64,000 nucleotides of DNA, from positions 310,001-374,000 of the forward strand of contig CAJNOJ010000034.1 of the NCBI GenBank assembly GCA_905250025.1. Reading direction: 5' to 3'. Origin of the DNA: Adineta ricciae (lineage: Eukaryota > Rotifera > Eurotatoria > Adinetida > Adinetidae). The stretch's first letter is position 1. Each line of letters begins with the position of its first letter. This document shows positions 18,705 through 58,144 of this stretch, one piece after another. The position numbers and the translations under genes are program-made. The notes beneath the pieces were generated by a model. That model saw nothing but the letters and a program-made list of their open reading frames with translations. It had not been told where the DNA came from and made no database searches.

Positions 18705-19511
18705 TTATCTCGGAGGATAATAAGTGCGGCCACTACGTAATTTGACGGCGTCAGTTCGATCGAGATCCATCTTGAGAACTAAGGAATCGAATTTATCGGC
18801 AACTAATTCATATATACTGTTATCAGTCACGTGTCCATCGTCTCGTCGAATGTGGCGTATACGGTCGCTCATAGTCGAGCTCGTGTTTTTGATAAGATCA
18901 ACGATATATCCTGAGTATGATGCGATCTGTCGTTCCTTGCCCGAACTTGTCTGAACCAGAGCGGTGAGAAGTGAAAATTCATTTTCTTTTTCTACATGGT
19001 TCAAAAAGTACTTCATAGCCTGGCCTTTCGATCGATTAACACCACAAGTAGTAATAACCAGATTCGAGACGTCGTTAACTTCGGCACGCAAGCACTCGAT
19101 TGTTTTAGTCGAAAACGCCTTAATTTCGTTGACAGCATAAATTAGAACCTGAACTTCATGTATATGATCCACGTCGTATCCGTTCGGTAATTTTCCATTC
19201 TCCAAACTTAGATTGTTTTTTGTATATGGATCAAGATAATTTCGAAGATTGATGATCGTGCTAACATTAGTACGCGTTCTAAGCTGATTGGATGTGCATC
19301 TTAAAGCGACGTACAAATCTGCATGTTCGCCGGAATGTCGTTCGATGTGTTTAGTGCTTTTTCGAATCGGTGTGTCAGTCTTTGGTACTGCTGATAAATT
19401 TTCGCTTATCGGACTCTTGTTTTCTTGTAACTGACACGGTTCTTCACGATCAGGATTTTGAACAGTGTCTTCACTTGGAGAATCGTCTGATTTTTCTACG
19501 GAATTTGACAT
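18705..19511 (-). CDS. uncharacterised DxxHxxE-motif protein, copy 1 (complete)
   Basis: One intronless frame of 268 residues from the ATG at 19511. The first 65 residues are acidic and polar; the remainder looks folded. The most telling motif is DVDHIHEVQVL (about residues 116-126), a D-x-x-H-x-x-E arrangement such as occurs in His-metal nuclease and other metal-binding families, followed by a helical region ending in CGVNRSKGQAMKYFLNH. The C-terminus ends LRSGRTYYPPR. The family is not known to me. The 19.6-kb repeat starts at 18843 within this gene, so the last 46 codons lie outside the duplicated block. Intronless structure may mean a retro- or transposon-related origin, but I see no reverse transcriptase or transposase nearby. 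Confidence 0.6.
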   Translation of the reverse strand: MSNSVEKSDDSPSEDTVQNPDREEPCQLQENKSPISENLSAVPKTDTPIRKSTKHIERHSGEHADLYVALRCTSNQLRTRTNVSTIINLRNYLDPYTKNNLSLENGKLPNGYDVDHIHEVQVLIYAVNEIKAFSTKTIECLRAEVNDVSNLVITTCGVNRSKGQAMKYFLNHVEKENEFSLLTALVQTSSGKERQIASYSGYIVDLIKNTSSTMSDRIRHIRRDDGHVTDNSIYELVADKFDSLVLKMDLDRTDAVKLRSGRTYYPPR

Positions 19512-21160
19512 CCTCACGAGCTACAGCTGTGAGTATTTTGGAACTGAAACATAAACAAATCACAACATACGATCAAAAATGAAATGAGGATTGACATTAG
19601 AGTTCTTCAAAGAAAAAGGTAATATGTACTATGAACAGTGTCTGAGACAGTACCTTTTGACGAATAGCCAATTATTTACAACATGAACACACGTGATAGT
19701 CGTTTATAAACGAAATATAAGGGATGTAACTATTACACTAAATACAAGAACTCAAATTGCCAATAGACCTTCTATAGCTGAAAGAGATCAGTAAGGACTT
19801 TTTCACACTTTTCAGCAACAACTAACACACTATAAACAATCGTAATTGTGCGATGTTATAACATTTAAACTAATTTGTCAAATTCAGAAGAAACAGAGAA
19901 AAATGTTTATCTGTCCCAGAGCCTAGTATCTGACTTATTTTTCTTAAAATATCGCAAGAATCTATGTTTGTGTTTCACGCTAAAAGCAGATTATTACATA
20001 CCAGTTACATAATCAAAATAAACTCAGAACGGAGGAGAGATAGGAGCAAAAAAAGATGGGGACGTCGCTCAAAATTTCTATAAATTCTAATAGATTAGAA
20101 CAATATTGATGTATCATTTCCGTCGTACGAAATCTGTCATTATTGGAATGATATAAAACAGTGCGATGCGGTTTGTTCTAGTGTGTATTACTTATGAGAG
20201 AATGCGCGTGACTCATGCTTAGTGTTGTTGTATCTTCCAAGGCTCTTTTTTCTCCTCCATCAAGACCTATATCGGAGCAATAGAAAAAAAGAATCATTGA
20301 TTCTACTCGTTCTGTTCTTTTTCTATTCTCCTCTGAATGCAGGAGAATATTCACCATAAAAATGTCTTCTTTTCTCTCGTGCGTACGCGTCAGCCCCTTT
20401 CAGTTCAGTCTTTGCTCAGAACAGAACGATAAAACTTGCGTTCTTTTTCTCTTTACTACTCGCAACTACATAGAATCAACGCTCCTAATACGGTCAGCGT
20501 GTCTATACGTTGTTCGTGGTAAGAACACACACTCCAACCATCTATATGCGTTGAATAAATGTCATTCGTCGTTCGAAAACTTACGTGCATAGATGGGAGA
20601 GATGATTGAGAATCGATCTGGCTGTTAAAGCATCTGCTGCCACTAATGTTATGATGTATGTGCTCAATGATTCAATATTTTGATCGAGATTGAAGGCTGA
20701 TTGAGTTGAACCTTCGAATGTTTCACTGCTATGTACTAAATTTCGCTAGTCGGGCAAATTTAGCGAACAGCGGTATGCTACTATAGCACAAATACGATTG
20801 AATCTTTCATTCAGTAAAAAACGGTGAGCTGACTAATTTTCGAGAACAATAGTTTGAGACAAAACGAAAAGCTTCTCTTGCTGGAGTTAAAACAACTAAT
20901 TACCTCTAGCTTTGACCAGGACGAACTCGATTTTCGTATATACTTTTTATATTCTATTTGCGTAAAACTGTATTTTTTTCAGGTAATTTTAAGGTTACTC
21001 AGTCTATACTGATATGTACTTGACAGAATGTTTCGTAAAGAAATACGTTCATAATCGTTTTGGTTTTATTCATGTTGCATAAATAGTACAATACATATAT
21101 TTATTGAAAAATTTACTGAACATATCCATAATACTAATGAAACAACGAGAGTGCCAGGGA
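19512..21160. other. intergenic
   Basis: No gene I can support. An open plus frame at 20362-20592 persists in both copies but has frequent non-conservative changes and no recognisable features. The TCG-CTAG-TCG sequence at 20743-20752 marks the site where the second copy has a 133-base insertion. Confidence 0.4.
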
Positions 21161-22093
21161 TTACCAAGCAGATCTTTGAAACATAATAGGTGAGCCACTA
21201 CCGGGTGTTAGTATCGGAAGATTTCCAAATGGTTGAGAACCATTAAAAGGTATGCCACCAGCAGCTGCAAATGGTGAGCCAGCGCGTGGTGGAATAGGTG
21301 GCGGCTGCTCTAATGGAAATCCAGATGGAATAATATTTGGGAATGGTTGAACATTATTGAAGGGAATACCATTCACGGGAGCGAAAGGTGAGCCTGGTCG
21401 TGGTGGTGCAGCCTTTGGAAATGGTTGAGGATTATTGAAAATCACACCATTATTCGGTGCAAAAGGAGAACCTGGTCGCACATTGTTGTAAGGATATCCG
21501 GCTCCAGCAAATGGCGAACCACGACGACGATGTTCATCATCACTACTTGATGTTGATCGGCTACGATGGCGACGGCGCGATGACGATCGGTGACGTGATG
21601 AAGATCGATGACGATACGATTCACCTGGGAGAGGTCGACCATAAGCACCACTACCAAAATGATTTCCTTCGCCACCTATAAATGGTGATTGCCGTCCAGA
21701 TGGAAATGGCATTGATGGATTAACAAAACCATTGCCTGGCATGATTGGCGGATTAGCAAAACCATTGCCTGGCATGATTGGCGGATTAGCAAAACCGTTG
21801 CCGGGCATTATCGGTCCATTGAAACCAGAGGCAAATTGGCCACCCATCGGCATTCCTCCAAAATTGGCAGGTGGAAAAGGCATTCCACCAGCAGGCAATA
21901 TGTTACCTCCTTGAATTGGAACGTTACTACCAAATAAAGCACCCGCATTGCCAAATTGTCCCAAGCCTGGCTGAACAAAAGGCGATTGAAAAGAAGCTGG
22001 TAAGCCATTTCCAAAAGGATTTCCGCCGAATTGATTCCTGCAATGGAAGGAGATATTAGGAGAAACTCTGAGAACTGAAATATAAACTTACAT
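21161..22093 (-). CDS. PF-repeat, SR-rich protein with a start codon split by an intron, copy 1
   Basis: The coding exon 21161-22037 is open from its splice acceptor to the stop. It begins G AAT CAA, and the exon upstream ends AT at 22092-22093 before a GTAAG donor. Joining gives ATG AAT CAA, so the 54-base intron 22038-22091 splits the start codon in phase 2. The product (292 residues) is low in complexity: an N-terminal Gly/Pro/Phe/Asn region with an 11-residue repeat PIMPGNGFANP, then an Arg-Ser tract (SYRHRSSSRHRSSSRRRHRS), then repeated RPGSPFAPNNG-type units to the end (MFQRSAW). SR tracts occur in splicing factors and RNA-granule proteins; a nuclear RNA-related role is inference. No signal peptide or membrane helix. 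Confidence 0.65.
21725..21815 (-). repeat. 33-bp coding minisatellite, three units
   Basis: Two units of 33 bases appear identical and a third is diverged, encoding PIMPGNGFANP-type repeats. The second copy of the gene has one unit fewer. Confidence 0.85.
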
Positions 22094-23059
22094 GCTTGTA
22101 CTGTATTAGCGAAAGAAAAGGTAAAATATATGTGTTGACAATTCACATAAAATGAAATGTTTATATACTAACAACATGGTTCTTTCGAGATGAATCACGT
22201 AATAGACAAGGTGAAATCAATGATGCATAACTGCAATGTGATTAAAGATGAATAAGGTCGGTAATTATTATATGAGTAATCAAAGCGTGGGCATATTTTT
22301 AGTAGCCACTGTCTATTTTGTTCATTTCATTCAAGTTATTTCTGAGTAATCAATATAACTGAAAACAAATATGCGCACGTGATGCATTGTCAATGAATAT
22401 GTGCTGATTCACACAAAAGTAATATCAAGAAAAGTTTATTGACGTCGTTTTCTGAGACATGTTCAAATATGAACGTCGAGAAGATAGAATTTGATTTGAA
22501 CTATGTCAGATCTAACGATAGAAAGCGTACAGTTGAAAGCATTTTTCTCAATGAGCAACATCAATATTTCCATTAGTAGTTCGTACGTGCAGAAACAAAT
22601 AAAACTATCGTAGTTAAATTACATCGGCGTGTGATGTGGCAAAATTTTGGTGGCAAATTTGCTCCTTTTTTTTTCTTTCTGTTCTGTTGTCCTCCAGCCC
22701 TGCTTTCTGTTGTTGTTGTCAAAGACGGGGCAACTTTATCTACCGACGAAGCTACGTTCTTCAACTCTGACACTGAGTCAGAGTCATGCGCCTCGATGTG
22801 CCTCTACATCGAATAATTTATGTATATTTTTGACGTCTGAGGCTGGTTACAAACATGCAAATACTCGCGTAATTTTATCGAAAAAATGGGAAAAAAATCG
22901 ATCAATCTCTTATCTGTATCGTTTGATAGCATATATTTTAAACGGCAATCAACACAGCAACCTTCACTTTGTTAAATATAACACAAACTATTTTATGTCA
23001 TTTATTTGTTTTTTTGAGGGTGAAACTACGTATATTTTCTTTCAGATTTCGTGTTCGAC
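22094..23059. other. divergent promoter region between the PF-repeat and NYN genes
   Basis: 966 bases between two genes transcribed away from each other. A splice acceptor (TTTCTTTCAG ending at 23045) just before the NYN start indicates an untranslated upstream exon with a 5' UTR intron, not otherwise placed. Confidence 0.5.
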
Positions 23060-24400
23060 ATGGCACGAGCAACGGTCGGTAGTACCGCTGCTGAAATGAA
23101 GACATTCACCGATTGTATGTTCTTTATGAACGGATCTTGTAAATTAAATGACAAATGTCGTTATCGCCATTGCGCAAAGGCTGCTGCGCAAACAAAAACC
23201 TGCTCTAAATGGCCAAAAATTTGCCGAGACGCTAGATGTTCCTATCGACACCCGGCACCACCCAAAGTAGTGGATGGTAACAAGAAAAAACTGGCATCTG
23301 AACCTGCAGCAAGATCAGTACCAACGCCATTGGCATCATCACAACCGCAACAAGAAATTCTAATCAGCTTCTTCTGGGATATCGAAAACGTTCCAATACC
23401 TAAAGGACAAAAACCGTTTGATATTGTTCAACGCATTCGCCAAAAATTAATCATTGAGGCTGGTCTACGAGAAGATAATTTCTCGTGTTTTTGCGACAGC
23501 GCCATGATATCCAAAGATAATCAATTAAGTTTATTGCATGCAAACGTCAGCATAGTACATGTACCCGACCGGAAATCCGGAGCAGTAGACCGTCAGATTA
23601 TGTTAGCGTTAGATCGTTTTGAGCGAGCTCATCGACCTCCAGCGACAATTGTTCTTATCTCAGGTGATATCGATTTCGTTGGTAAATTAAGTGATCTTCG
23701 TCATCAAGCCGGTTTCCATGTTATTGTTATACATAATAAACCAGCGAAAGAAGAGTTAAAAGCTACGGTTAATGCTCATTATCCGTGGGAATTGTTTACA
23801 CAAGCATTGTCAAAAGATGTTAATCTTCTTCCTAATTTAATGGAAGAATTAACAACACGTACGCCTCAACCATATCGAATGGCCAGTTCGAATAGAGATG
23901 GCCATTTGCATACGGTTGAACCGTCACCTAATCGACCAGTGGCGTCAGCGAAATCACGACCAACTCCAGCAAAAAAACAAACATATCCATGCCCAAAATG
24001 TTCCAGTGAATTCGATTCAATTCAAGCTGTCAGACAACATCAAGAAGCCAAAGATCACCTTTTTGATTGTCCCAGGTGTGATGAAACATTCACCACACTC
24101 GATGGCTTGACTCAACATAAGAAAGCGAAAGATCATCAGGACATTGACTATGGTTGTGGACAATGCAATCGCCGGTTTAATCAACTTGATAGTTTAAATC
24201 AACATCAGAAAGCGACAGGTCACTCGGATTTGTTTAAATCGGTGCCTGTTATATCTGATGGTCTTCCTCGTGACAAAACACCTCCGAGGAACAATTCAAC
24301 TACAAGCAATGTTTGGGAAGATGCAGCCACGGTTATTATCAGTCAAGGTATTGCTGCACTTGTTAAACATTATCCGGCGGTATTTGCCAACAAAAAATGA
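23060..24400 (+). CDS. CCCH - NYN (PIN-like) - C2H2 zinc-finger protein, copy 1
   Basis: One coding exon of 446 residues from ATG 23060, which follows a 5' UTR splice acceptor. Two CCCH fingers: C19-x7-C27-x5-C33-x3-H37 and C48-x6-C55-x4-C60-x3-H64. Then a NYN domain of about 140 residues starting ILISFFWDIENVPIPKG, with the characteristic first Asp in WDIEN, later VDRQIMLALDRF and LISGDIDFVGKL, which supply the acidic metal-binding residues of PIN/NYN nucleases. The C-terminus has three C2H2 fingers of the C-x2-C-x12-H type (YPCPKC, FDCPRC, YGCGQC), each ending in H-x5-H. The closest known architecture is the MARF1/limkain NYN group, RNA nucleases or RNA binders; the exact combination here is unusual. 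All acidic positions I would expect are present, so ribonuclease activity is plausible. Confidence 0.85.
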   Translation: MARATVGSTAAEMKTFTDCMFFMNGSCKLNDKCRYRHCAKAAAQTKTCSKWPKICRDARCSYRHPAPPKVVDGNKKKLASEPAARSVPTPLASSQPQQEILISFFWDIENVPIPKGQKPFDIVQRIRQKLIIEAGLREDNFSCFCDSAMISKDNQLSLLHANVSIVHVPDRKSGAVDRQIMLALDRFERAHRPPATIVLISGDIDFVGKLSDLRHQAGFHVIVIHNKPAKEELKATVNAHYPWELFTQALSKDVNLLPNLMEELTTRTPQPYRMASSNRDGHLHTVEPSPNRPVASAKSRPTPAKKQTYPCPKCSSEFDSIQAVRQHQEAKDHLFDCPRCDETFTTLDGLTQHKKAKDHQDIDYGCGQCNRRFNQLDSLNQHQKATGHSDLFKSVPVISDGLPRDKTPPRNNSTTSNVWEDAATVIISQGIAALVKHYPAVFANKK

Positions 24401-25259
24401 ATCAAAATTTGTTTTAATTTAAAATATTCTTTTACCATTATTTACAGAGAAATCGAGTTCATTGATTTTTCGGTAAATCGACGAAAATGGTCTGAAGAAT
24501 AAGCTGATCTTCAAATTGAAAAGAAATATTTGAATGATCAGCGTTTCATTTAAAACTTGTATCGAATATTTCTATTCGATAAACAAGTGAATGAAACATG
24601 TAAAATAAATCATATCTATTTTTGTAGTGATCAAATCAGTAATTCGATTCTGTTTTATTCATTAGAAATATTCAATTACTTGTAATAAACAGTTGATAAA
24701 TCTATTCATACGAATGATGAAGTACTTGGATAGCTGAATAGTTGAATTGAACTTTCGAGTTTGATTACACTACTAGTCGCTTCTAATAAATGTGTAAATG
24801 GATTCATAAGTACGATTTGTTATTGTTAAAATCTTCAGTGAAGCACAAAACACTTCTTCTCTTCAGCTATTTTTGAAACATTAATTTGTTTCCTATGTCG
24901 TATAATTTGAGTGTTTCCACACAGTTAGTTATTCTCTCCTATTTTTATCGCAAAAATCAGCCATTCGTAAATATCATGTGAGATCAAAATTGTTGTTTTA
25001 TGTTTAGTTTCACGAAGAAAAAGAAAGAAATACATATAAAATAAACTGATGAATCCTACAGATATTATTGATTTGATTCAATGCTACTGTTGTCGCGTAT
25101 GATCGTCATCGTCGTTATTCATCTGAATTTGTCATACGTGAGCACTAATGCAGAACACAAAAATGATTTGAGCACACATGTTAACGTACATGAACAGAAA
25201 GAAGAATGCAATTTGCATTAGGCTGACTAGATGCCAAGAATAAAAGCTGAAAGTATCGA
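24401..25259. other. convergent intergenic region
   Basis: Lies between the 3' ends of the NYN gene and the MFSD8-like gene. AATAAA-type signals occur near 24603. Nothing else seen. Confidence 0.4.
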
Positions 25260-27479
25260 TCATAAAGTTTGTGAAGATGATTTTGACAAGCCGTTTTCAA
25301 CAGTCCGATTTTGGTCGTCCGAGACGCAAAGAACATTTGTTGAGCTGGTATCGTAACGAAGTTGAGAATCGAGATTCGACGATGAATTACATTTGGAATT
25401 TTTCTTAGATAAGCATGGCTTTTGTTCATCATCCTGTTGAACAAGAGTGATATAACAATTTTTCGATGATAATGGTAATGCTGTATTCTCATTGTCATCT
25501 GCAATCGATGAGCTTTTGTTCAGCGATGGACTAGTCGGATCTTTTCGATCTGATGAATTGTTCGGGTCAGACATTGGACGTAAACGTTTTAGAACGAAGA
25601 ATAATGCGATCAAAGTAAAGAATGTCAACGTAAGCATAGTTGTCATCATAATATGAAGACGTGTGAGAAGTGCTGCTGCAAATATTGGACCAACTACAAA
25701 CAAAAAGTTCGAAATGAAGAGAATTTTCATCTGTTTTTCTTTCATCTTACTTATGGTTCCGATGCCCATGACTAGTCGTTGAATGCCTTGTGAAAAACCT
25801 TGTAGTTCTTTGATGGTCAATTTCGTAAATATTGATACACTAGTTGCTGCTAAGAATGGTAAACCAAGAAGATCAAGTATAACGAAAACGATGAACATTG
25901 CAAATAGACGTTTATCGACTACTCCTTGACTCGATTTGCCTGACCAACCGAATGATTGTGAAGCCCAGGTAAAAAATACTCCCAAGACGCAAGCAGCGGT
26001 TAGTGATATGAAACCGAATACAAGTAAAAAGCGATCTTCAAAACGTTTCGACAGGACAAAAACAAGTAAAACATAAACAGTAATAATTTCTAAGCCAGCG
26101 AAAGCAAATAAACTAGATGTATGGACTATATTCCAACCAAAATTTTGTTCGGTAAACGCTGCTACTATTGTTTCTAATGCTGTTTGATTGAAATAGGCAA
26201 TGAATGTGGCAAAGAATAGGACGAACATTTCGATCCGCACGTATTGACGGTAATATGCTTCGGATGATAGTTTCTGTTGATCTTGTCGAGATGGATGATC
26301 TGATCGAGTGTATTTATGTTTTGGAGAATTATCGGATGTCGACGGTCCGGTTGTTGTTGATGGCGTTCGATCATAGAAACAAAACCAACAAACAATATGG
26401 AGTATTAACCAAATAGAAGCCATTAGAAAGCCAGGACCATTTAATGGATTGATATGAACAGTACCTGACAGAGAAAAAAGTATTTACATTAAAGATGCGT
26501 ATTTGAAAGAGAACAAAACAATATACAAACCAATGTAAAAGTCCATTTTACGAACGAGTAATGTAAAACATGGACCGACTAATAGACCTATTCAGAAAGA
26601 TATATTGAATAACATCGAAAAAGCTGACACCCATCATTTTAATCTATGAATCGTAAATGAAAACAGAAGAACATACCCAGTTGTCGACACCCAAGAATTA
26701 TTGCAATGGCTTTTGTTCGATCTTTTTCAGTTGTTCGATGAGCTACGTCAGCAAGAATCTAACACGAAATAATCGAGATGTACGTAAATGTAAGATCATT
26801 GAACAAAAAACAGTTTTCTTACTGGTGGCACGGCTCCCATGCCAACACCAGAAATCAATCGTCCCAAAAGGACAATATGGATATTATTCGTCACAAAATA
26901 CAGAATATTTCCGCCAATTTCAAATAAATTCGAGACAAGGATAAGGACTTTCACTTTGCCAGTTACATCGGAGATTTTTCCCATGATAACACCTGTTACT
27001 GCGCCAGATACGCTATAAAATGACAGTATTAAACCTACATAAACTGAAATTGGCGTCATTTTTTTAACATAATCGAACGCTGTAGGTAAAATAACTGCGT
27101 ATTCGACGCCTGTCATAAAAGCAAAGAGACATATTGTTCCAAATGTTAACATAACGCGTCGGTGCCCATGTGTCCAACGAAAAAAATCGGCTGAATGTGT
27201 GACTGGTGTTTTCGGTTGTTTCTCGTCATCATCTTCTTCAATCACGTTGTCCAGATGGACTGGAGAAGCTTTTCGATAATCTGGATAGTTTGTTGTATCT
27301 GGCGTATGTATAGGTGAAGTTTTTGAATTGTTGTCCAACGGTGAATACGACCGTTTGGGAGTTTTAAACGTGTCTCTGCACGTATCTTCGGAAATTAAGT
27401 GTTCTGATTGTGCAACGACATCTGCATCTTGACTGCTCAGCGAAGAGCGACGATGTGAATCCAACAAAGATCCGTGCAT
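25260..27479 (-). CDS. major facilitator transporter, MFSD8/CLN7-like, copy 1
   Basis: Five exons on the minus strand: 26823-27479, 26677-26758, 26531-26587, 25751-26464 and 25260-25693, joined in frame to 647 residues. The first 110 residues are cytoplasmic and polar, with LLDSHRRS and an acidic EEDDDE. Twelve membrane segments follow, with the MFS loop GKISDVTGKVKV after TM2 and an LGRLISGVGMGA TM4. NQTALETIVAAF and GFSQGIQRLVMGIGTI resemble the MFSD8 C-terminal half. MFSD8 is a lysosomal membrane protein linked to chloride or solute export. The long polar C-tail (about 120 residues) is Ser-rich. The last intron (25694-25750) is 57 bases, in frame and without a stop, so retention would insert about 19 residues in this copy only. 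Start Met at 27479 is the first after an acceptor-like site; an upstream exon is possible. Confidence 0.8.
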
Positions 27480-29150
27480 ACCGCCGTTTGTATCTAAATC
27501 TAAATGATACACATAGATAAAATGAAACACCGATTAATAAACAAGTCGGCTAATTATTTAGATAAATATATCTTTTGCTAGAGGAAAAAAGAACATGAGA
27601 GCTTGTTTGACTTGTAAACTATGTTTGTTGTTACGTGTCATTATATACACGCCTATGTTATTCTAGGACAAGCAACACAACTTTATAGATAGTCAATTTT
27701 CTAGCAAAAAGAAAATAAGAAGGAGAGAATGGTAAAATACGCTGGCTATACAAAATTTAGAACCGAGCAATAAGCAGCGAGACATCGTCATCAACAACAA
27801 CAACAACAGCGGACTTTTTTCTCTCTCAGTCGATCAACGCATCGTTGGTTGTTAGCGATGGAAGGAATAGAGAACTGTGTATGGTAGAAATAAACGCGGA
27901 GGTTCCTTCGTCGAAGATTCCTTTTTCTCCCTCTTTCCTTTTCTCTCGTCTTTTTCCCTACTAGCGCTTTTCACAGAAAGAAAAAGAAACACATGTGAGC
28001 TAAAGATCGACCCGATATATCTACATACAACTGTTTCAATTTGATTTAAATAAGTAATCATTAGTACGCGCAAAATTTATGCAGAAAAAGCAAATTGAAA
28101 GTACTATCAATATTTGATAAGTGAAGAAGGAACGGAACTGCTCTTAAGTCTCCTTCGGTCGTCAAATCTATTTCACTCATTGAACTGCTCTACACGACAC
28201 ATATGTTCATTCGAAATAGCGATGATACACTACTATTTTTTGCTCTTCCCTCAGTAGTCAAGGACGACTACTAAAAACCTTGAAAATTTGTCTGAATTAT
28301 TCTCTCTGAAATAGCTCTTTTAAGATTTCGTGAAGAGAACATGTCTGTGAGGAAATATAACCACAAATGAGCAACTAACCTGGTGTGCAGACCATATCTT
28401 GTTAAGTAGTATAATTGTACCTGCGAATGAAAATGCGAAAGAAGAAATATGTTTTCTTATTGCTTGATTATCACATGAATGACGAACAATATTTTCATTT
28501 GTTTACAACGTACCTCATTGCTGTAATAGCTTGTTTATTGCATGTGTTATGCTCGCGATTGCCTGGCGAAAGGAAAGGTGAATCGAAGTTGGTGTCCTTT
28601 GCTTCGCTGCTGTGATTCGAATGTGTACGCATAGCGTTCGCGTGTCATTTGTTGTAGCTATGCAGGCAAATCCTCCTTTCGTTCTTATAATTGCAATGAT
28701 AAGAAACGAATGAAAAATAAATTTGATTCGAACAGAACAAAGACGAGCGAGAAGAAGAAGAAGATGTAATCTATAATGATAAGGGAAAATGATGAATCTT
28801 TTGTTCAGCAAACTTGAATGATGAATCTTGCTCATATCATGTCAAGGCTTAAAGTCGAAAAGAGAAACTGATTTTGTTTTATTCTCATACGACAGTTAGA
28901 ATGACAAAAGGTGTAATAGAACGCTGATAGAAATGTGTTTTTTTTTCGAAGAAAAATTGTTTAGTTGTTCAAAACCGTGAGAACCAAAGACGAGATAATA
29001 GATCTTATCAGAGTGCAGTGAAACAAAATTGAACTATACATTAAATAAGAAGTGAAAACTAACAACAAAAACAGAAAACATCGGTAAGAAAAAAAAAGAA
29101 AAAGAATCACCGTCTTGCAAGAGAACAAATATAGAAATTGGTTGGCTGTT
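27480..29150. other. intergenic upstream of the MFSD8-like gene
   Basis: 1.7 kb with no gene I can support. It holds an acceptor-like site just upstream of the MFSD8 start, an AAC microsatellite near 27793-27807 and an AAG tract near 28750 whose length differs between the two copies. Several open frames on both strands are not maintained as proteins. Confidence 0.45.
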
Positions 29151-29966: not shown

Positions 29967-30144
29967 GGTCTAAAAAATGCGAAGAAAATAGAAGATTAGT
30001 CGATTAGATCAGGATATAATTTCATTTTGAAACTTACTTTTCTTCTACTACTATACACGTATTACATGTCTATCTAATCAGCCAATCAACTTCTTACGAC
30101 GAATAACTGCGATATATATTTCTCACTGGATGTCGCCACACGCT

Positions 30145-47128: not shown

Positions 47129-48804
47129 ACCGCCGTTTGTATCTAAATCTAAATGATACACATACATAAAATGAAACACCGATTAGTAAACAAATCGGCT
47201 AATTATTTAGATAAATATATCTTTTCCTAGAGGAGAAAAGGACATGAGAACTTGTTTGACTTGTAAACTATGTTTGTTGTTACGTGTCATTATATACATC
47301 TCTATGTTATTCTAGGACAAACAACACAACTTTATGGATAGTCAATTCTCAAGCAAAAAGAAAATAAGAAGGAGAGAATGGTAAAATACGCTGGCTATAC
47401 AAAATTTAGAACCGAGCAATAAGCAGCAAGACATCATTATCATCAACAACAACAACAGCGGACTCTTTTTCTCTCTCAGTCGATCAACGCATCGTTGGTT
47501 GTTAGCGATGGAAGGAATAGAGAACTGTGTATGGTAGAAATAAACGCGGAGGTTCCTTCATCGAAGATTTCTTTTTCTCCTTCTTTCCTTTTCTCTCGTC
47601 TTTTTCCCCCACTAGCGCTTTTCACAGAAAGAAAAAGAAACACATGTGAGCTAAAGATCGACCCGATATATCTACATACAACTGTTTCAATTTGATTTAA
47701 ATAAGTAATCATTAGTAAGCGCAGAATTTATGCAGAAAAAGCAAATTGAAAGTAGTATCAATATTTGATAAGTGAACAAGGAGCGGAACTGCTTTCAAGT
47801 CTTCTTCGCTCGTCAGATCTATTTCACTCATTGACTTGCTCTACATGACACATATGTTCATTCGAAATAGCGATGATCCACTACTATTTTTTGCTCTTCT
47901 CCCAGTAGTCAAGAACGACTACTAAAAGCCTTGAAAATTTGTCGGAATTCTCCTCTCTGAAATAGCTATTTTAAGATTTCTTAAAGAGAACACGTCTGCA
48001 AAGGAATATACCCACAAATGAACAACTAACCTGGTGTGTAGACCATATCTTGTTAAGTAGTATAATTGTACCTACGAATGAAAATGTGAAAGAAGAAATA
48101 TGTTTTCTCATTGCTTGATTATCACATGAATGACGATCAATACTTTCATTTGTTTACAACTTACTTCATTGCTATAATAGCTTGTTTATTGCGTGTGTTA
48201 TGCTCGCGATTGCCTGGCGAAAGGAAAGGTGAATCGAAGTTGGTGTCCTTTGCTTCGCTGCTGTGATTCGAATGTATATGCATAACGTTCGCGTGTCATT
48301 TGTTGTAGCTATGCAGGCAAATCCTCTTTTCGTTCTTATAATTGCAATGATAAGAAACGTATGAAAAATAAATTTGATTCGAACAGAACAAAGACGAGCG
48401 AGAAGAAGAAGAAGAAGAAGATGTAATCTATAATGATAAGAGAAAATGATGAATCTTTTGTTCAGCAAACTTGAATGATGAATCTTGCTCATATCATGTC
48501 AAGGCTTAAAGTCGAAAAGAGAAACTGATTTTGTTTTATTCTCATACGACAGTTAGAATGACAAAGGGTGTAATAGAACGCTGATGGAAATGTGTTTGTT
48601 TTTCGAAGAAAAATTGTTTAGTTGTTCAAAACTGTGAGAACCAAAGACGAGATAATAGATCTTATCAGAGTGCAATGAAACAAAATTGAACTATACATTA
48701 GATAAGAAGTGAAAACTAACAACAAAAACAGAAAACATCGGTAAGAAAAAAGAAAAAGAATCACCGTCTTGCAAGAGAACAAATATAGAAATCGATTGGC
48801 TTTT
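47129..48804. other. intergenic, copy 2
   Basis: Counterpart of 27480-29150. The AAG tract near 48402-48420 has about two more units than in copy 1. No gene supported. Confidence 0.45.
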
Positions 48805-49620
48805 TCATCGGGACCACGTCTTACTGGTTGGCGTTCTTCGATCAGTGAAAAACGAGCGAAGTAGTAAGACAGTACCAATAGCTACGATAATAATAAGAAT
48901 AAATTGTCCTAATGACCAGATTTGTACACGCTCTTGAAGATCTTCGGCACGTGCACGACCGGTTGCTTCACGTAAACGATGATGTGTTTGATAATCGATA
49001 CAAGACTCAAGGTTACGATGAATGTTTCCTACTTTTGATTCGATCTAATGAAACAGAAAGAGCATTTTCTTCAGAAATTTTTCTTTCGTGAACTAACCAT
49101 CGTTAATGCACCTTCAGCAACACGCGGATTTGCACCACCAATTTCGTGCTCGGGATCACCGTCAACTCTCCAATCTAAATGAGTATACATGACTTTTCTT
49201 CATGGATAACTCGTTCATTCGTACCGATATAGATAACTTTATGTGTGTAAGTGGAAAATTCATTGCTGAAACAGAATTCATACACGCCATCTTCTTCAGC
49301 TGTTCGTTCGATTTGATCGTATTGTTTTTTTGTTACTTGATATAAGACTTTACCCGATGGACTTTTTAATTCTAAATCAACATCATAGTTACCGCCCGTG
49401 ACGACCTATTGAATACAAGAGAAGTTTGCTAGCCTTTGTTTTGAATAAATTCTAAAGAGTTTACTTGAAATTCTAAGACATATTTGGAGCCAGTTTTGAG
49501 TTTTTCATTGAAACATTCTTTTGCATTGTCCGGCAGTTCAAACGTTAATTCATTCGCAGATATTTCATGAAAAAAAAACGCTATGAAAAATAACGACGCA
49601 GAGAGTCTTGAGCTTAGCAT
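48805..49620 (-). CDS. p24/TMED family cargo receptor, copy 2
   Basis: Exons 49465-49620, 49225-49405, 49098-49174 and 48805-49044 match the lengths of copy 1 exactly and give 217 residues. The signal peptide, GOLD domain, coiled coil, membrane helix and FFTDRR tail are all retained, with very few substitutions (for example I/T in EKLKTGSK and R/S near RSFF). Confidence 0.92.
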
Positions 49621-49805
49621 GGTCTAAAAATGCGAAGAAAATAGAAGATTAGTCGATTAGATCAGGATATAATTTCATTTTGAAACTTAGTTTTCTTCTC
49701 TTCTACTACTATACACGTATTACATGTCTAACTAATCAACCAATCAACTTCTTACGACGAATAACTGTGGTGATATATGTTTCTCACTGGATGTCGCCAC
49801 ATACT

Positions 49806-49819
49806 TATTTCTTAGCAAC
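49806..49819 (+). promoter_or_regulatory. candidate RFX X-box upstream of TTC8, copy 2
   Basis: Same 14 bases, TATTTCTTAGCAAC, at the same distance from the TTC8 ATG (49897) as in copy 1. Confidence 0.4.
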
Positions 49820-49896
49820 AAGGAAAAGTATGCGTTCAAGTAATGGTAGCAAGCTTATGAACAGTAAATAATTACAGAGCAAAACTTTTGCCAGAT

Positions 49897-52233
49897 ATGG
49901 ATTTGCTTTTTCAAGCAGTAAGTTTGTTTCGCCGCCGTCAATATGAAACATGCGTTGAAGTGACTACTCGCCTACTTGCAAAGAGTCCAAATGATCAAGT
50001 ATACTTCGACAATTGAGAAACTCATCGAGAGATAATGCCATCGTTTTTTTGTTTAGGTGGCATGGCTACTCAAAATGCGTGCATTGACTGAACAATTGTA
50101 TGTTGATGAAACGGAAGTGGCTGATGATGGTCTTGCAGAGATGTTAGACGAAAATGCATTTCATCAAGCGCCCATGCCTGGCACATCAATGCGACAGCCT
50201 ACAGCAAATCCAAATTCGGGAATAAATGGACCCAGTCCAGCGATGCGACCAATGACAATGACTGGAAGGCCGATAACGGGCATGCTGCGATTGAACACTC
50301 AATCGACACAAGGTGGTAAAAGTGTGGAACATGTTTTAAAGACTGCTCGAACGGCTGCAACAGCACGACCTGTCACAACCGCTACAGGCCGTTTTGTTCG
50401 ACTTGGAACAGTAAGTTTCGTTTACAACTGAAAAGAAAACTTCGAAGAAAACGATTTCTGAAAAAATCGAACATAGAATTCATTGTCAACTATTTTAAGT
50501 CATTAGCTGGCGTTAAATTAATTCCAAATTTCATCGGCATATTAGTTTCTTCGTTATCGCCACATATACATTGACAGTTTAGACGATATTCAGGCATAGT
50601 TAAATATTCTTGGATATCACGCAGAAACTCGGATGAATTAGTTTGACACCGAGAGATTTCTTTACTGGTATCACAACAACATTTGCAATCAAGAAATGAC
50701 ACATTTAGATGATCTTTCAGATAGCCGGATAATGTTTCTTGATGATTGTTATTCGTTGAACATGCATATGTTGTCGTATTTGGACTGCAGTTCATGATTA
50801 ACAAACGAAAGATTGTTAAGAAAACTCAGGCGCGTTTATTTACTTATTTGTAGGCATCGATGCTAAGTACACCTGATGGTCCTTTCATTCAAGTAGGTCG
50901 ATTAAATCTGCCTAAATATGCACAAAATCAAGCGTTAGCTCGATCACTCTTTGAACATTTGTTTCATCATGCCAACGATGTTCGAACGGTATGCAATACA
51001 AATTTCTGACAAAAGACTGTCATTATTATACTTAATTACTACACAGGCACAACAATTAGCTATTCATGCGAATGAATATGCGCAAAATAAAGACTGGTGG
51101 TGGTTAGTGCAAATTGGTAAATGTTACCACCGGTATGCACAGACTTTCTTAAATCAATAGTTCTTACCATTCATCTTCTAGGTTGGACATGTTTCGTGAC
51201 AGTGAAAAACATTACATTCTTTCATTGGAAGTTCAGCCGATGGTTGATACTTATCTATATTTAGCCAAAATCTATCTTCGCCTGGATCAACCATTGCTGG
51301 CCATTAGTAAATTACGGGAAGGATTAGAAAAGTTCTCACATGAACCGTGTCTAGTCCAAGCAATTGCACGTATTCATGAGGTTTGGTAGAAACGACAAAC
51401 CAGCTAATCTTTATTTTCAAAATCTCTTAGGGTTTGAACGATATGACGCAAAGTATTGACTACTACCGGCAAGTTTTGAAATTAGACAATACAAACATTG
51501 AAGCCATAGCATGCATTGCTGCCAATCATTTTTACAATGACCAACCGGAAATTTCATTGAAATTCTATCGGCGCCTTTTACAAATGGGTGTGACCACTTC
51601 TGCTGTGCTTTGCAATATTGCCTTATGCTGTTTTCATGCTCAACAATACGACATGATCGTCGCCTGCTTTTTAAAAGCCTTAGCTGTTGCCACAGTTGAC
51701 GAAGACCGAGCTGAGATCTGGTACAATATCGGTGAAATGGCCTTGGTATGTACTGAATACATTTCGACAACCTGAACATCTAGATCAATTTCGAATTTTA
51801 GTATACATCAGATATTCAATTAGCGATTCAATGTTTCCGTTTAGCACTTGTTTACAACAATGATCACGCCGAAGCGTATAATAATCTAGGTCTGGTAGAA
51901 ATCCAACGAAGCAATCATGAAATCGTACGTAGTCTCCTCTCTGATAGTACCGATTGATTATGAATGATCATTGCAGGGTCGAGCTTATCTACAAACAGCT
52001 CAAAGTCTTGCTCCACACATGTTCGAACCGTATTATAATTACGGTAAATCGATGTATCAGGTAAATAATACTTTTCAAAATCGTTGTCGTTTTAATGAAA
52101 AAATGTTCTGTTATAGCAAGGTGATTTACAAAGTAGTTTCCGTGCAATAAAAAGTTCACTGGATATTTATAAGAAGCATTCCGATTCGAGGCATATTTAT
52201 GACGAATTGAAACAGATGTTTGCAGAGCTTTAA
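49897..52233 (+). CDS. TTC8: Bardet-Biedl syndrome 8 protein (BBSome subunit), copy 2
   Basis: Nine exons (49897-49998, 50057-50410, 50854-50988, 51047-51132, 51182-51380, 51431-51745, 51802-51924, 51977-52060, 52117-52233) with lengths identical to copy 1, 504 residues. About nine residues differ from copy 1, mostly conservative (A/V at the exon 2 start, V/I in YLAKIYL, H/N in NHFYN). All intron positions are kept, and the stop is TAA here against TGA in copy 1. Confidence 0.96.
50490..50795 (-). CDS. nested antisense small Cys-rich protein in TTC8 intron 2, copy 2
   Basis: 101 residues from ATG 50795. All ten Cys and the two clusters (LDCKCCCDTSK and LNCQCICGDNE) are unchanged from copy 1; replacements fall in spacers (D/Y, P/S, A/T, P/S, N/E). 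No frame lesion despite about 5% nucleotide change. Confidence 0.55.
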   Translation of the reverse strand: MNCSPNTTTYACSTNNNHQETLSGYLKDHLNVSFLDCKCCCDTSKEISRCQTNSSEFLRDIQEYLTMPEYRLNCQCICGDNEETNMPMKFGINLTPANDLK

Positions 52234-52499
52234 CAAATAAACATACGTTTTCGTCTTTTAATGTTGTTTTGTAAATAAATGTTATATCATTGTACTTGAA
52301 AGTCTCTTTTCGAAATGTCAGCTAGAAATTTTCGTTCGATTGAATTGATCATGGCAAGTATCGACAAACGTAGAAAGTCATTTACATAATAAAATCAAAA
52401 TCCCAGTTGTGACTTATTTCATTCGCCCGTGTCAATTTGCATAGTACCAACTGGCAAACCTTGTGTTTTTTCCATATCTGAGAGAAAACAAATCATCTA

Positions 52500-54179
52500 T
52501 TATTTATCGATTTTCAGCAATTCTTGCAGCTGATGTCGATTTATCACAATTCGATTTATAAACCAAAGTGAGCAAATAGCAAGAACAAAACTTGTTACGA
52601 TATACGAAAGAGTCGATTTAAATATTAGCATTATGTAACCCATAATAACGGATGAGATGATTTGTGATGCAAAATAAGTACTGTCAAGTATGCCGAGTAT
52701 TGTTCCAATGCCACGTGTTTGTAAAACGGGATTATCGATAAAGTAGACCTAAAAATGCGATTATTTATTTTGTGAGAGAAACAGTTGTCTGTTTTTTGTT
52801 TACCTCTCGATTTGCATGATAGGTCATGACGAGTGTGTAAGGGATGGACGTTAATGACGCCATTCCCAGACCAGATAATGATGCCATAATGTTAATGATA
52901 ATGATGTTTCTTGAGACATATATAACCATCATTGATAGTGCAAAGATGAACATGCCGAATGAAAAAGTAAGATGAATACCAAACTGATTGATCATCGGCT
53001 TGAGTAATGGTGCATAGAGTGCACCGACGACACAATGAAAGAGTAATCCATAAGAAGCGACACGAACACCTTGATCATATCGTAAACGCTCAACTGATAA
53101 TTCATCCGCACTTGGATCGCCCATATAAACTGTTTGACCGACGAAATCAGTGAAAAACAAATTAAATGTCATAATCGCAGACCTAGATCATATTTAGAGT
53201 GAAGGACAAATCATATTCAATCTTTCATTTGCATACCATGAACAACATTCAGCTAATGTTAATCGTCGCAGAACAAATGGCATCGTAAGAATCGTTCGAA
53301 CAGAATTTGAGACAGTATGAAGAATATATTTTAATAAATGAATGAGAAAGAAACTATCTATCAGATTCGTATCGATGCCTGTGCTTTGCTCATCAGGAAT
53401 ATCGTAAATCTTCTCATTAGCAGATATCAATGTACAGCAAAGTGTTATCGAGAAAAATAATAAAATAACAATAAAGGTTAATTTTTCTTGTCCCTGCATA
53501 TAATTACTAAGAAATGATTCAGTCCAATCGGTAGCCGTGATTAAATATCCGAGACATCCACCTAAAACAATCGATGAATTTACCTTTTGTTTTTACAAAC
53601 TTGAATATTCGTTACCGAATGATGTCATGAATGAATAGACGAAAAAACACGAAGATTCTTGCGGTGTACCTTTACATACATCATAAATTAGGGATTCACA
53701 TGGATTGAAGCAAGCTTGAGCAGAAAAGTCAAATAGAACGCAAGTAATAACTAATAAGCACAATCCAAGTTTAGGCGCATGTAGCAGTTGACCTAAAGAG
53801 AAATTTATCGCGTGAGCGTTTCATTCCTTCGCTCAGTTTTGTTTTGTTCTCTTTTCCTACCGATCGCTTCACTTTGTGGAATCAGCATGAGGCAAAAGAT
53901 GATTGTCAAACAAAAGCCAAGTATAAATGGACGTCGCTTACCGAACCGAGATCGACATCGATCACTCGAATGGCCAACAACAGGACAAAGAAGAAAACCA
54001 AGTAACGGACCGCAGCCCATTAACCATGTCATCGACGATTCGGATATTCCAGCTTTGAGTAAAATCGGTGGAATATATGTAAATGCTGAGGCAGTACAAA
54101 ATTCTAATCCACATACGAGAGATGTAATAATCAATAAATGGAATAGATCACTATTGTAATATGATTGTAAATACTTCAT
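52500..54179 (-). CDS. SLC45-family transporter, copy 2
   Basis: Exons 53861-54179, 53616-53792, 53237-53561, 52804-53182 and 52500-52748, same lengths as copy 1, 482 residues. Only a handful of residue changes (K3Y, Q/R in LRRLTLAE, I/V in RVASYG, Y/H in MTYHANRE). The SRFGKRRPFIL signature is intact. Confidence 0.88.
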
Positions 54180-55800
54180 ATTTCACAACCACTTGTGAAG
54201 ATCATAAGTAAAATATATTTGTTTTTTGTTTATCACAAGGCCATATTTTTCCTTTGATTACAGAACAGTGAACTTCTACTTCGCATTTTACATATGTGCG
54301 CATAAAAACACCTCTTTTTTTTGTTATGTTCTGTCGTAAATACACATCTCGGCATGTGATGCGGTCACTGAGAGAAATTGTTTGTCAGAAGACGAGAGAA
54401 AGAAAGAAGAAAGACAAACAGGCAATGACTTTCTCTCCCACTCTTTCTCAGCTGTAGAAAGAACATATTATCAACGAGAAGGGAACAGAATATGTATAGA
54501 GCTTCTGTTTATATGTATTGTTATACTATTTCTTTTCTTGCTAAGCGATCAGAGCAGAGCATCGGCGGCCGTCTGCAATTGGTTCGATGAGAACTAATCG
54601 ACAACGATGACAACCATCCGTTTTGCTTACGTATATGTTCTTTGTTCACTTGCAGTCGATTTACATCATCGCATATCGTTTGTACGGACGAGATTTAAGT
54701 GCTCGCTTCAATAGAAAGAGAACCCTAAGAAGAAAATGAGAAAGAGAAAAATAAACATCGACTGATTAGTTTTGTTTTTCATTGTGACAAATTAGGAAAT
54801 GTAGATTATCTACTCAGCTATTGTCAATGTATACTATTCAATAACCTTACTTACGAGAAAAGAGGATAATAACTGTTACATTATTCATAGAAACTTATTT
54901 ATACATAATTTTAATATATTCAAGAGAATTATCGATGTGAAGTACGAGTGGAATGAAAATTGCACAGCTAATCATTTTACGCCACAAATTCTTCTTTCAT
55001 TTTCATGTCAGAGTCATATCGATAGGCAACGTCGGAAACGCATTTTATGTTACCAAATGATCTTAATAAACTCTGACAGGCAGACAAATCATTTCTATAT
55101 CAAACACTGAACGATAGTTATATGACTAAAGAGAAATTTTATGACAAGCAATGGTTAATGCTGCAGCACACTTGAAGAGCTCACATAGTACTTTTACAAT
55201 ATCAGACTATATAAATTTCGATGATACTCAATGACTAACAAAAAAAAAGCAACTGACAGTGTTCTAAGAATACCAAGAGAAGAGTATTTGACGGTGTATC
55301 TTAGACAGTGTGCACGAAAGTGAGGGTCATACTCTCCGCTCTCAATGGTTTTCGTTTCTATTGAATGTAAGCGCTTCCGAAAGTTACGAAAATCGGTTTG
55401 TTACAAATGTCCATGACATAAAAACAATTGCTATGTGATATTGATCTCATACGAATGAATAATACCGCGAAAGGATCTTCTTACTAAATTCATCTCAAGA
55501 CTTTCATCAGAATATAAACTTAATAGATTTTTCCTACATGATTATTAAGAATTGTTCTCGATTCCAGTTTGTATTGTTTTCGTTTTAGACCAACCTTGAC
55601 TTTAATTGAGTAAATACGACAAAACTTTGATGAATTTATCCATCAACGCATGAGTACTAAAGACTGATAATTATATGACATTTATCTTCTCTTCGATGCC
55701 GAGCTTTGTGCATATAATTCTTTTGTCTCCTATATCACATGATATCTAAAAAGACAAGCGACACAAAATATATCCGAGCGCTGTGTCAACAAAAGAAATA
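54180..55800. other. intergenic, copy 2
   Basis: Counterpart of 34531-36098, with no supported gene and many indels relative to it, including an extra segment of about 18 bases near 54379. Confidence 0.45.
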
Positions 55801-55819
55801 AAGCGAAAAGCTTAGTATC

Positions 55820-56657
55820 TCATAGCGTGTAGTGGAAATCGTCGTCCTAACATACGTTTTGCTGCATAGTGAAGTGCGAAAAACAAACTTTTTGCCACTA
55901 ATTTCACGAACTGCTTCTGCAGCTTCGATCAAAAACTTTTCACTGACGGTACTCGAACAAATGTCATCAGTTGTATCAATCACCAGTAACTCATCTTAAT
56001 TAGGAATATCTGATAATAACATCGTATTGCTCATTTTAGGATAAATCCTAACTTTTTGAATGAACCAAGAAGTATTTTAGAGTTCTGCAATGGGATTGAA
56101 AGTTAGCGTGTGCAACAGTTATGAGTATGATATAAATAGGTATTGCTTTTTTTGAAAAAATACTCACTGTCTGTTATATAAACTATCAACATCGATGAGA
56201 TCTTCAAAATCGAAAAGTTCTACTTGTTCATGACTAAAATTTACTGGTCAGAAAAGAGAGTCACTCACGGTGAAATGCATTCGATACCTGAAAATCGAAC
56301 AAAGGTGAAAGAAAACGTAAAGAATCAATTCGTTATTTATCATCAGATATTTGTTGTACGACATATCACAAACAATCACATCTCTAAAAAGATTCGTCAA
56401 CTTCTCTCTAGAATTTCAGTCACTTTCAATTCACTAACCAAAATCAATCCTTCATGCTTCTTTTCAAACAGAATCCCTGCATATCCAGACGTCTGTTGTA
56501 TTTTGTACAATGACAATGGATAATTATCATGAATGCAACTATTACTGAGTGCATATGTTATTATTTTGAAAAGAGAATGAAATTATAGGTGTGTTTTGTT
56601 TTTGTCTTTGATAACTTCTCTTTCCACGAGACCGACTTCGATTGTATAATCGATCAT
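55820..56657 (-). pseudogene. Tudor-like gene remnant, copy 2
   Basis: Homologous to 36150-36950 but carrying its own lesions. The first exon from ATG 56657 meets a TAA after about 24 codons owing to small indels, a later segment has lost about 13 bases, and TGA codons replace sense codons in the following text (one where copy 1 has Trp in LFWPV). It keeps about 74 bases missing from copy 1 that read RIYPKMSNTMLLSDIPN, then a TAA, then DELLVIDTTDD before VSEKFLIEAAEAV. Not functional as it stands. Confidence 0.45.
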
Positions 56658-58144
56658 CTTTTCGCGTCAATATCAAAAGAAATCAAGACTGAAACTTTAT
56701 TTCACGTGTATATGAACCTCAAAAGAAATGATTAATAAAGTTTTACGCTGCTTCACTAAAACATTTCATTTCAAATTGCAATACATTTTTTACATGTCAA
56801 ATGTCACTAAAACAATCAATCAAACACAAAAATATAGAGAGTAACAATTCGTTAGCAACATTTGATAATTAATGAAAAATACACGATTTGACCAGTCATC
56901 CATGGTAAAAACGCGTCAAACAAAATGTTCAGTGAATATGTGTTTTGTCCTGTAAAATTAACTTCATTTGACAAGAACATCAAAGATATGACATTTTGTT
57001 TGCGCTCGAACTTGAATTTGTAATTTCGTTTGTCCTGCTGTGTCTATTCAATTGAATACGACTCAAATGTGAATGAGGGACGATCAAGAAAACAATCGAA
57101 CATCGGACGACTTGCACAGCAAGCGATTTCCGTCAACGATTAACACTATTAATTAAATCATCGATGTCGGTCGACAATAAAAAGACAACAGTAGGAGTAG
57201 ATCTCTTCATCATCAAGACTCTTCAACAGTTTGTTGTCATGTTTTCAAAGCGCCAGTCATGTTCTAACAAAGATCAATCATATATACAAAAGCGAATGAT
57301 GTTCATTGAAATGTTAAATAAGATAAAAATATTTCCTCAATTATCTGACATTTCAGACGCAAAGAAGAAGAAATAAACGTTCGTTATCGTTTGTATATAT
57401 CGATGAAGGAAACATTTTCTTCGTGATTTTGCTTAATCAGCAAGACAAATGCTTTTTAGTAATGAAAATTACATCACAGACATGTGAAGAAAATAACAAA
57501 CTTCGGATGTTCATTTGTTCAGCACAGATAGATGCTGACAAAAAAGAATGGACCATGAAGTCAACTTCGATATTTACTTGACGTGATTGAATTGTTAAGA
57601 TTATATCCTGGTCACTTATTTTTCTCTCCTCTCTTCTCTTCAAACAACGAGAGAAAAGAAATAAACATGACAATAAATCGCCTGTGCACTCGTCATTCTT
57701 CTCTTCATTTGTTCATCGCTTGAGAGATGATAGTTCGTAGCATACTGGATTAATAATATAAGAGCTATTCTTCGCATTCACTTCTGTCTATCTATATATA
57801 TAAATATAACTAGATACACACGACTAGCCGTTGTACTTTTGATGAATTATTGCCTTTTTTTTCCATAGAACGAGGGAGAATAGATAATCAAAAGATTGAA
57901 TAGACTAGCAATTCTTATCTGTGTATATGTAGACAAACACGGAAGACGAAGTAAATCATCATCGACTAGAGAGTAAAGAAATAGTGTTCATTTTATTTGT
58001 ATGTTGATTACCAAAATCGATGACGTGTACACATACGTAGGGTGAACTTTACTTTCGAGAGTCCTTTCGTCTGTTACTTCTCCTGTTGTTGACCATCATC
58101 GAGAATATGAAGAACACGAGATAAGATCGATGACAAGTCAAGTA
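56658..58144. other. intergenic, copy 2
   Basis: Counterpart of 36951-38439. The segment matching 37184-37680 is unusually similar to copy 1. No recognisable gene. Confidence 0.4.

What the first reader, a model, noticed from the sequence alone, without database searches (positions are those of the whole stretch)
18843..58144. A 19.6-kb locus appears twice, head to tail, with a single N exactly at the join
The copies 18843-38439 and 38441-58144 share gene order, orientation and every splice site, and differ by about 1-5% plus indels. Copy 1 ends and copy 2 begins at the N. Copy 1 continues leftward, and copy 2 rightward, into unique DNA. This is the pattern of two overlapping haplotype contigs placed end to end. 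Bdelloid rotifer drafts are known for separately assembled allele copies. If it were instead real, it would be a recent large tandem duplication of eight genes.
Basis: partly seen in the sequence, partly recalled or inferred. Interest (0 to 1): 0.75.

Follow-up and report, generated by a model that had tools for sequence, protein, structure and literature searches.

The report
Two alleles misjoined as tandem duplication
A 19.6-kb stretch seems to occur twice in a row in this rotifer-like genome, but it is almost certainly the two parental versions of one stretch placed end to end by the assembly software, so it is a draft-genome error and not a gene duplication.

Summary
The direct repeat is real in the file: 18843-38439 and 38441-58144 abut on a single N, differing by 5.5% substitutions plus indels. 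It is an assembly artefact: two alleles of one locus set head to tail, a "heterotype false duplication".

The decisive evidence is a mirror image. The window lies on C34; the homologous scaffold C26 carries alleles of both flanks, and there they abut across a single N (C26:30893) with the block missing. A 4-kb piece of the block found only the two C34 copies at allelic identity: no surplus copy.

The same swap occurs at the window's other N (7083) and two more C34 joins: 4 of 4 end-to-end repeats have a matching hole (an N or scaffold ends) in the homologue. Ks between the copies (0.129) is close to that of C34/C26 alleles (0.109) and published A. ricciae homologues (0.135; PMC5916493).

Read depth and spanning reads could not be tested.

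The parts
18843..38439 (+). Copy 1 of the block (allele A1), joined without a gap to the left flank; ends at the N
   Evidence: BLASTN across the N; alignment
38440..38440 (.). Single N: join of two contigs
38441..58144 (+). Copy 2 of the block (allele A2), joined without a gap to the right flank
   Evidence: alignment
8531..18476 (+). Left flank; its allele is C26:40608-30894 (minus strand), which stops at the N C26:30893
   Evidence: 95.2% substitution identity
18477..18842 (+). 366 bp between the end of the C26 left-flank allele and the start of the repeated block; no second copy found up to 18800, the end of the query
58145..58416 (+). 272 bp between the end of the repeated block and the start of the C26 right-flank allele; no second copy found from 58200, the start of the query
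58417..63318 (+). Right flank; its allele is C26:30892-25750 (minus strand), which starts at the N C26:30893 and is itself interrupted by a single N at C26:29293 with a 221-bp overlap
5810..7082 (+). Second, smaller false duplication, copy 1 (ends at N 7083)
7083..7083 (.). Single N, second join in the window
7084..8352 (+). Second false duplication, copy 2 (96.9% to copy 1); the homologue C26 has an N (40609) and lacks most of this block
18705..19520 (-). Open frame whose last 46 codons lie outside the block; its copy-2 counterpart (from 38444 up, minus strand) runs into the N instead
   Evidence: ORF list; count
23024..24400 (+). NYN-domain / C2H2 zinc-finger open frame; allele at 42703-44079
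   Evidence: ORFs; Pfam NYN E 1.4e-14; Ks 0.099
25260..27533 (-). Exons of a major facilitator superfamily transporter; allele at 44911-47182
   Evidence: ORFs; Pfam MFS_1 E 1.8e-13 and 7.1e-09
31773..32129 (+). TPR-repeat exon; allele at 51431-51775
   Evidence: ORFs; Pfam TPR_1 E 1.5e-07
33101..34533 (-). Exons of a second MFS-type transporter; allele at 52765-54182
   Evidence: ORFs; Pfam MFS_1 E 3.9e-08 and 2.6e-05 for two exon pieces, both below the curated cut-off

Best explanation
The tandem repeat is a heterotype false duplication. The animal has one copy of the 19.6-kb locus per haplotype. The two alleles, about 5.5% apart, were assembled as separate contigs with staggered ends: one runs from the left flank through A1, another from A2 into the right flank, and the other two haplotype pieces (left-flank allele, right-flank allele) stop short of the block. 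The scaffolder then linked left-flank-A1 to A2-right-flank on C34 and left-flank allele to right-flank allele on C26, swapping haplotypes in both. Presumably the estimated gap was negative (the contigs overlap by the whole block), the divergence prevented merging, and a token single N was written. Shown here: the overlap, the N, the complementary hole with an N on C26, and the repetition at other joins. Inferred: one copy per haplotype in the animal, the scaffolder's reasoning, the negative gap estimate, and that contigs break where the two haplotypes become locally identical.
For: (1) The repeats start and end at the N. (2) Of 6 N-runs in C34:210001-474000, 4 (317083, 348440, 395255, 418237) are flanked by end-to-end copies of about 1.3, 19.6, 5.5 and 7.3 kb, 91.7-96.9% identical by BLAST piece and within 2 bp of the N. 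(3) All 4 self-hits of 2 kb or more (from 3 joins) and 10 of 11 of 1 kb or more have an N between the copies; 7 of those 11 belong to the four clean joins and 3 to a gene-family region. (4) The homologue lacks the block at 4 of 4 clean joins: single Ns at C26:30893, 40609 and 9896, and scaffold ends C26:1 and C84:1 at the fourth. (5) Searches with a 4-kb and a 0.5-kb piece of the block gave two near-identical copies, both on C34; the rest were short or 68-87% matches. (6) Identity of the tandem copies in 500-bp windows (median 0.952, n=39) is not significantly different from C34/C26 alleles (0.960, n=36; Mann-Whitney P 0.11). (7) Pooled Ks 0.129 for tandem copies, 0.109 for C34/C26 alleles, against published means of 0.135 for A. 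ricciae homologues and 1.267 for ohnologues (PMC5916493, passages). (8) The right end of the overlap at 38440 is a 221-bp exact match, the longest run in the 19.6-kb alignment, and 170 bp at 7083; in the 19.6-kb alignment runs of 150 or more cover 3.1% of positions. (9) The copy-2 counterpart of ORF 18705-19520 runs into the N and loses the part that codes for the last 46 codons in copy 1.
Against: No reads are available, so half depth and absence of spanning reads are untested. Two of 6 N-runs on C34 (216614, 223159) do not show clean end-to-end copies; they lie in a tandem gene-family region. The tandem copies are slightly more diverged (94.5% substitution identity) than each of the four C34/C26 allelic stretches compared (95.2-96.7%); a fifth, weaker stretch (window 63433-64000, 80%) was not in that comparison. 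Long exact matches at the right-hand edge occur at 2 of 4 joins; the other two have 26 and 13 bp, and the left-hand edges have 73, 14, 28 and 3 bp. The sample is 264 kb of one scaffold and 21 kb of its partner, not the whole genome. The scaffolding program is unknown.
Confidence: 0.97

Rival explanations
1. Real unequal exchange between homologues: one chromosome gained a tandem pair of alleles (L-A1-A2-R) and the other carries the reciprocal deletion (L'-R'), both products being kept in one clonal lineage.
For: It predicts the same complementary arrangement of duplication on C34 and deletion on C26, and bdelloid drafts have been reported to carry linked homologous blocks (PMC5916493, passages on A. 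vaga 2013 and A. ricciae).
Against: An N sits exactly at the join on C34 and at the deletion on C26; the complementary pattern recurs at 4 of 4 clean end-to-end joins on the stretch, which would require four reciprocal exchanges, each with Ns or scaffold ends in both products. The 366 and 272 bp next to the block found no second copy in the parts queried, whereas a clean exchange loses nothing.
Confidence: 0.015
2. Ordinary recent tandem duplication on one haplotype, with an unrelated gap at the junction.
For: Head-to-tail order and open frames in both copies in 7 of 8 exon pieces.
Against: It predicts a third copy on the other haplotype; C26 has none at the place, and searches with two pieces of the block found only the two C34 copies at allelic identity. 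The copies are about as diverged as ordinary alleles, so not recent.
Confidence: 0.01
3. The two copies are homoeologues (ohnologues) from the ancient bdelloid genome doubling that were misjoined.
For: Bdelloids are reported as degenerate tetraploids (PMC7943196, section 5).
Against: Ks 0.129 is far below the published ohnologue mean of 1.267; a better homoeologue candidate, scattered pieces 66-90% identical and in the same order as C34, lies on C22.
Confidence: 0.003

Closest known systems
Heterotype false duplication (Ko et al. 2022, PMC9516828; passages seen)
   Same: Both alleles of one locus sit on one scaffold like paralogues, separated by an assembly gap, in a divergent region; genes at the edge are cut.
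   Different: Here the complementary loss on the homologous scaffold could be shown, because this assembly keeps much of both haplotypes at this place; half read depth, discordant read pairs and 1-copy k-mers could not be tested.
Linked homologous blocks in Adineta drafts (Nowell et al. 2018, PMC5916493; passages seen)
   Same: Tandem arrays of homologous copies on one scaffold (2 cases in A. ricciae; 2 tandem and 23 palindromes in A. vaga 2013); the authors note that many breaks in collinearity span scaffold gaps.
   Different: Whether this assembly is related to theirs is not known; here 4 such arrays (most of them only a few kb) occur in 264 kb and each is traced to a join.
Gap handling in SSPACE-LongRead (PMC4076250; passages seen)
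   Same: [quoted passage not shown] gaps are written as one or more N.
   Different: The program used for this assembly is not known; the passages seen do not say what is written when the gap is negative and no overlap is found.

Membership tests
Heterotype false duplication | Assembly gap between the two copies on one scaffold | tested here: met
   Single N at 38440 with copies abutting on both sides
Heterotype false duplication | The two copies are alleles (heterozygous, not paralogous) | tested here: met
   Indirectly: both flanks have alleles on C26, where the block is missing; allelic level of divergence. Direct proof needs reads.
Heterotype false duplication | Haploid-level read depth in each copy | not testable with these tools
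   No reads are held
Heterotype false duplication | Discordant read pairs across the join | not testable with these tools
   No reads are held
Heterotype false duplication | 1-copy (haplotype-specific) k-mers in the copies | not testable with these tools
   Needs read k-mers
True tandem duplication | More than two copies of the block in the diploid genome | tested here: not met
   Only two near-identical copies of the two pieces searched, both on C34; C26 lacks the block. The assembly may be incomplete.
True tandem duplication | Junction present in continuous sequence | tested here: not met
   The junction is an N
Linked homologous blocks / ameiotic architecture of bdelloids | Homologous copies physically linked on one chromosome | tested here: inconclusive
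   Linked only across Ns; complementary holes on C26 argue strongly against

The most novel reading that the evidence does not exclude
The C34/C26 pair really carries reciprocal products of unequal exchange between homologues, kept in a clonal animal: tandem alleles on one chromosome and matching deletions on the other, at four places. That would be physical linkage of alleles, incompatible with ordinary meiotic pairing there.
Probability: 0.015. Interest if true: 0.85.

Novelty: not a real feature. Interest (0 to 1): 0.18.

Why it matters
As biology it is ordinary. It matters as a warning: linked allelic copies on one scaffold have been read as signs of long-term asexuality in bdelloids (as told in PMC5916493, passages), and here such copies arise at joins and come with equal false losses on the partner scaffold. 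In the 264 kb of C34 examined, the four second copies add up to about 33.8 kb, roughly 13% (my sum from the coordinates). Gene counts, copy-number and synteny claims from this assembly should mask blocks that abut on an N. A simple test follows: for each N, ask whether its two sides overlap and whether the homologous scaffold has a hole there.

Tried and rejected
Chance placement of an N beside a true duplication: rejected because it recurs at 4 of 6 N-runs on the stretch, with a mirrored hole at each of the 4.

Homoeologues: rejected on Ks.

Contig breaks at homozygous stretches as a general rule: only partly borne out; long exact matches lie at the right-hand edge of 2 of 4 joins.

Splice-site conservation as independent evidence: led nowhere; donor-like hexamers are kept as often as random ones. 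A first scan with 8-base patterns, control patterns included, found no match at all. A first Ks run on the RS-rich open frame used a wrong frame (stops inside, Ks 0.507) and was replaced, where the right frame gave 0.170; one MFS exon piece with a stop in copy 2, whose ends I cut by hand, was left out of the pooled Ks.

Naming the species: the genome (130.46 Mb, 1033 contigs) resembles but does not equal the A. ricciae ARIC003 entry (135.6 Mb, 4302 sequences, GC 35.5%; PMC7943196, table 1 in section 5; assembly methods, section 17; other passages). Window GC in 2-kb steps is 32-41%. Not settled.

Literature: a search for chromosome-scale A. vaga work on palindromes listed two papers on other organisms (listing only). 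PMC7749112 (passages) has the word 'palindromes' twice in places not shown to me, and 'tandem' and 'colinear' not at all. PMC8110574 (passages), found by a search for the single-N rule, mentions negative gaps but not that rule; a further search led to PMC4076250. My belief that some scaffolders write one N for a negative gap is recalled. tRNA scan of the window: none.
Full report
OBSERVATION. The window holds two Ns, at 7083 and 38440. BLASTN of everything left of 38440 against everything right of it gives collinear, same-strand hits from 18843-38439 to 38441-58144, touching the N on both sides. Global alignment gives 18,370 matches, 1,062 mismatches and 437 gap bases in 56 gaps.

THE SAME SIGNATURE ALONG THE SCAFFOLD. 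The window is C34:310001-374000 of a genome of 130,461,839 bases in 1033 contigs. I fetched 100 kb on each side and examined all 264 kb. There are 6 N-runs, of 1, 10, 1, 1, 45 and 1 bases. Four of the 6 (C34:317083, 348440, 395255, 418237) are flanked by end-to-end copies reaching the N within 2 bp, about 1.3, 19.6, 5.5 and 7.3 kb long. The other two (216614 and 223159) lie in a tandem gene-family region whose repeats do not end at the Ns. Of the 15 self-hits of 500 bp or more (80% identity or more), all are direct and 13 have an N between the copies; of those of 1 kb or more, 10 of 11 (7 at the four clean joins, 3 in the gene-family region); of those of 2 kb or more, 4 of 4, from 3 joins.

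THE MIRROR IMAGE ON C26. Searches of the own genome with the left flank (14800-18800) and the right flank (58200-62200) found, besides themselves, close copies on one scaffold, C26, on the minus strand, and weaker ones on C22. Reading C26:24001-44000 showed that the left-flank allele ends at C26:30894 (window 18476), a single N stands at 30893, and the right-flank allele begins at 30892 (window 58417). The 19.6-kb block is absent there. A 4-kb piece of the block (22000-26000) found itself and its tandem partner at 93%, and six weaker pieces of 68-87%, three on C22 and one each on C538, C622 and C685. A 0.5-kb piece found the two C34 copies and a 107-bp, 84% match on C22. So, as far as these pieces tell, left flank, block and right flank are each present in two copies; only their placement is odd. 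The small repeat at 7083 is mirrored too: on C26 a single N at 40609 stands between the equivalents of window 5873 and 8531, so most of that block is missing. For C34:395255 the alleles of the two flanks end at C26:9895 and 9897 and position 9896 is an N (fetched, read). For C34:418237 the left-flank allele ends at the scaffold end C26:1 and the right-flank allele begins at the scaffold start C84:1, with two copies of a 3.2-kb piece of the block on C34 and none at allelic identity elsewhere. All 4 of 4 clean end-to-end repeats thus have a complementary hole or break in the homologue.

DIVERGENCE. In 500-bp windows the tandem copies have a median identity of 0.952 (n=39), the C34/C26 alleles 0.960 (n=36), Mann-Whitney P 0.11; overall the tandem pair (94.5%) is slightly more diverged than each of the four allelic stretches (95.2-96.7%). 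One further C34/C26 stretch (window 63433-64000, 80%) was not part of this comparison. Pooled Ks over seven stop-free exon pieces of the tandem pair is 0.129 and Ka/Ks 0.19 (an eighth piece was dropped for a stop); for two C34/C26 exon pieces Ks is 0.109. Nowell et al. 2018 give a mean Ks of 0.135 for A. ricciae homologues and 1.267 for ohnologues, and a median divergence of 4.55% between homologous gene copies (PMC5916493, passages). The copies are alleles by this measure, and the C22 matches are the likely homoeologue.

HOW IT AROSE (partly inferred). The right edge of the overlap at 38440 is a 221-bp exact match, the longest run in the 19.6-kb alignment; at 7083 the run is 170 bp; at the other two joins only 26 and 13 bp; the left edges have 73 (317083), 14 (348440), 28 and 3 bp. 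So at least two contig ends lie inside stretches where the haplotypes are identical, where short-read graphs cannot separate them (general knowledge). The 366 bp (18477-18842) and 272 bp (58145-58416) between the C26 flank alleles and the block found no second copy in the parts queried. The scaffolder then paired the wrong ends. A join whose estimated gap is negative and whose overlap is too divergent to merge would plausibly get a token N; [quoted passage not shown] Which program made this assembly is not known.

GENES. The block holds an NYN/zinc-finger protein, a major facilitator transporter, a TPR-repeat exon and a second MFS-type transporter that scores below the Pfam cut-off; 3 of the 9 frames submitted that lie in or overlap the block had no Pfam hit. 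The frame 18705-19520 on the minus strand extends 46 codons beyond the block on the left, so its copy-2 counterpart runs into the N. On C26 the gene near window 7083, which I read as alpha/beta-hydrolase-like (my reading of the letters, from no call), is correspondingly cut at the N (ORF list). Each false gain on C34 thus goes with a false loss on C26.

RIVALS. A simple tandem duplication predicts a third copy, which was not found. Unequal exchange with both products kept predicts the same layout, but would need four such events, each with Ns or scaffold ends in both products. I put it at 1.5%.

KNOWN KIND. Ko et al. 2022 list haploid read depth, gaps between the copies, discordant read pairs and one-copy k-mers as the marks of false heterotype duplications (PMC9516828, passages). 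The gap was tested here and met, the allelic nature met indirectly; depth, pairs and k-mers cannot be tested without reads. Nowell et al. 2018 report 2 tandem and 23 palindromic linked blocks in A. vaga 2013 and 2 tandem cases in A. ricciae, and note that many collinearity breaks span scaffold gaps.

VERDICT. Its use is as a clear demonstration, from sequence alone, that the allelic tandem arrays seen on this scaffold are joins with reciprocal losses.

Noticed in passing
window 5810-8352, N at 7083: A second end-to-end repeat (1.27 kb, 96.9%) on a single N, mirrored by an N and a missing block at C26:40609.
   Followed up: yes
C34:389738-400819 (N-run at 395255) and C34:410908-425592 (N at 418237): Two more end-to-end allelic repeats of 5.5 and 7.3 kb outside the window; C26 and C84 appear to be neighbours broken at the second one.
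   Followed up: yes
C26:29293 (L036): Single N with a 221-bp, 99.5% identical overlap of its two sides: an unmerged join with almost no divergence.
   Followed up: partly
C34:210001-229000 (L004, L005): A tandem gene-family region with repeats at 82-95% identity and two N-runs that do not fit the clean end-to-end pattern.
   Followed up: partly
C22:268034-334533 (minus strand): Scattered matches, mostly 66-85% identical, in the same order as C34: the likely homoeologous region of the ancient genome doubling.
   Followed up: partly
C34:242804-253719 (L007, L008) and C34:257016-260329 (L008, L009): Two direct repeats with no N between the copies (1.5 kb, 93%, 9.4 kb apart; 0.54 kb, 99.4%, 2.8 kb apart): the only 2 of 15 self-hits on this stretch without an N between them.
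   Followed up: no
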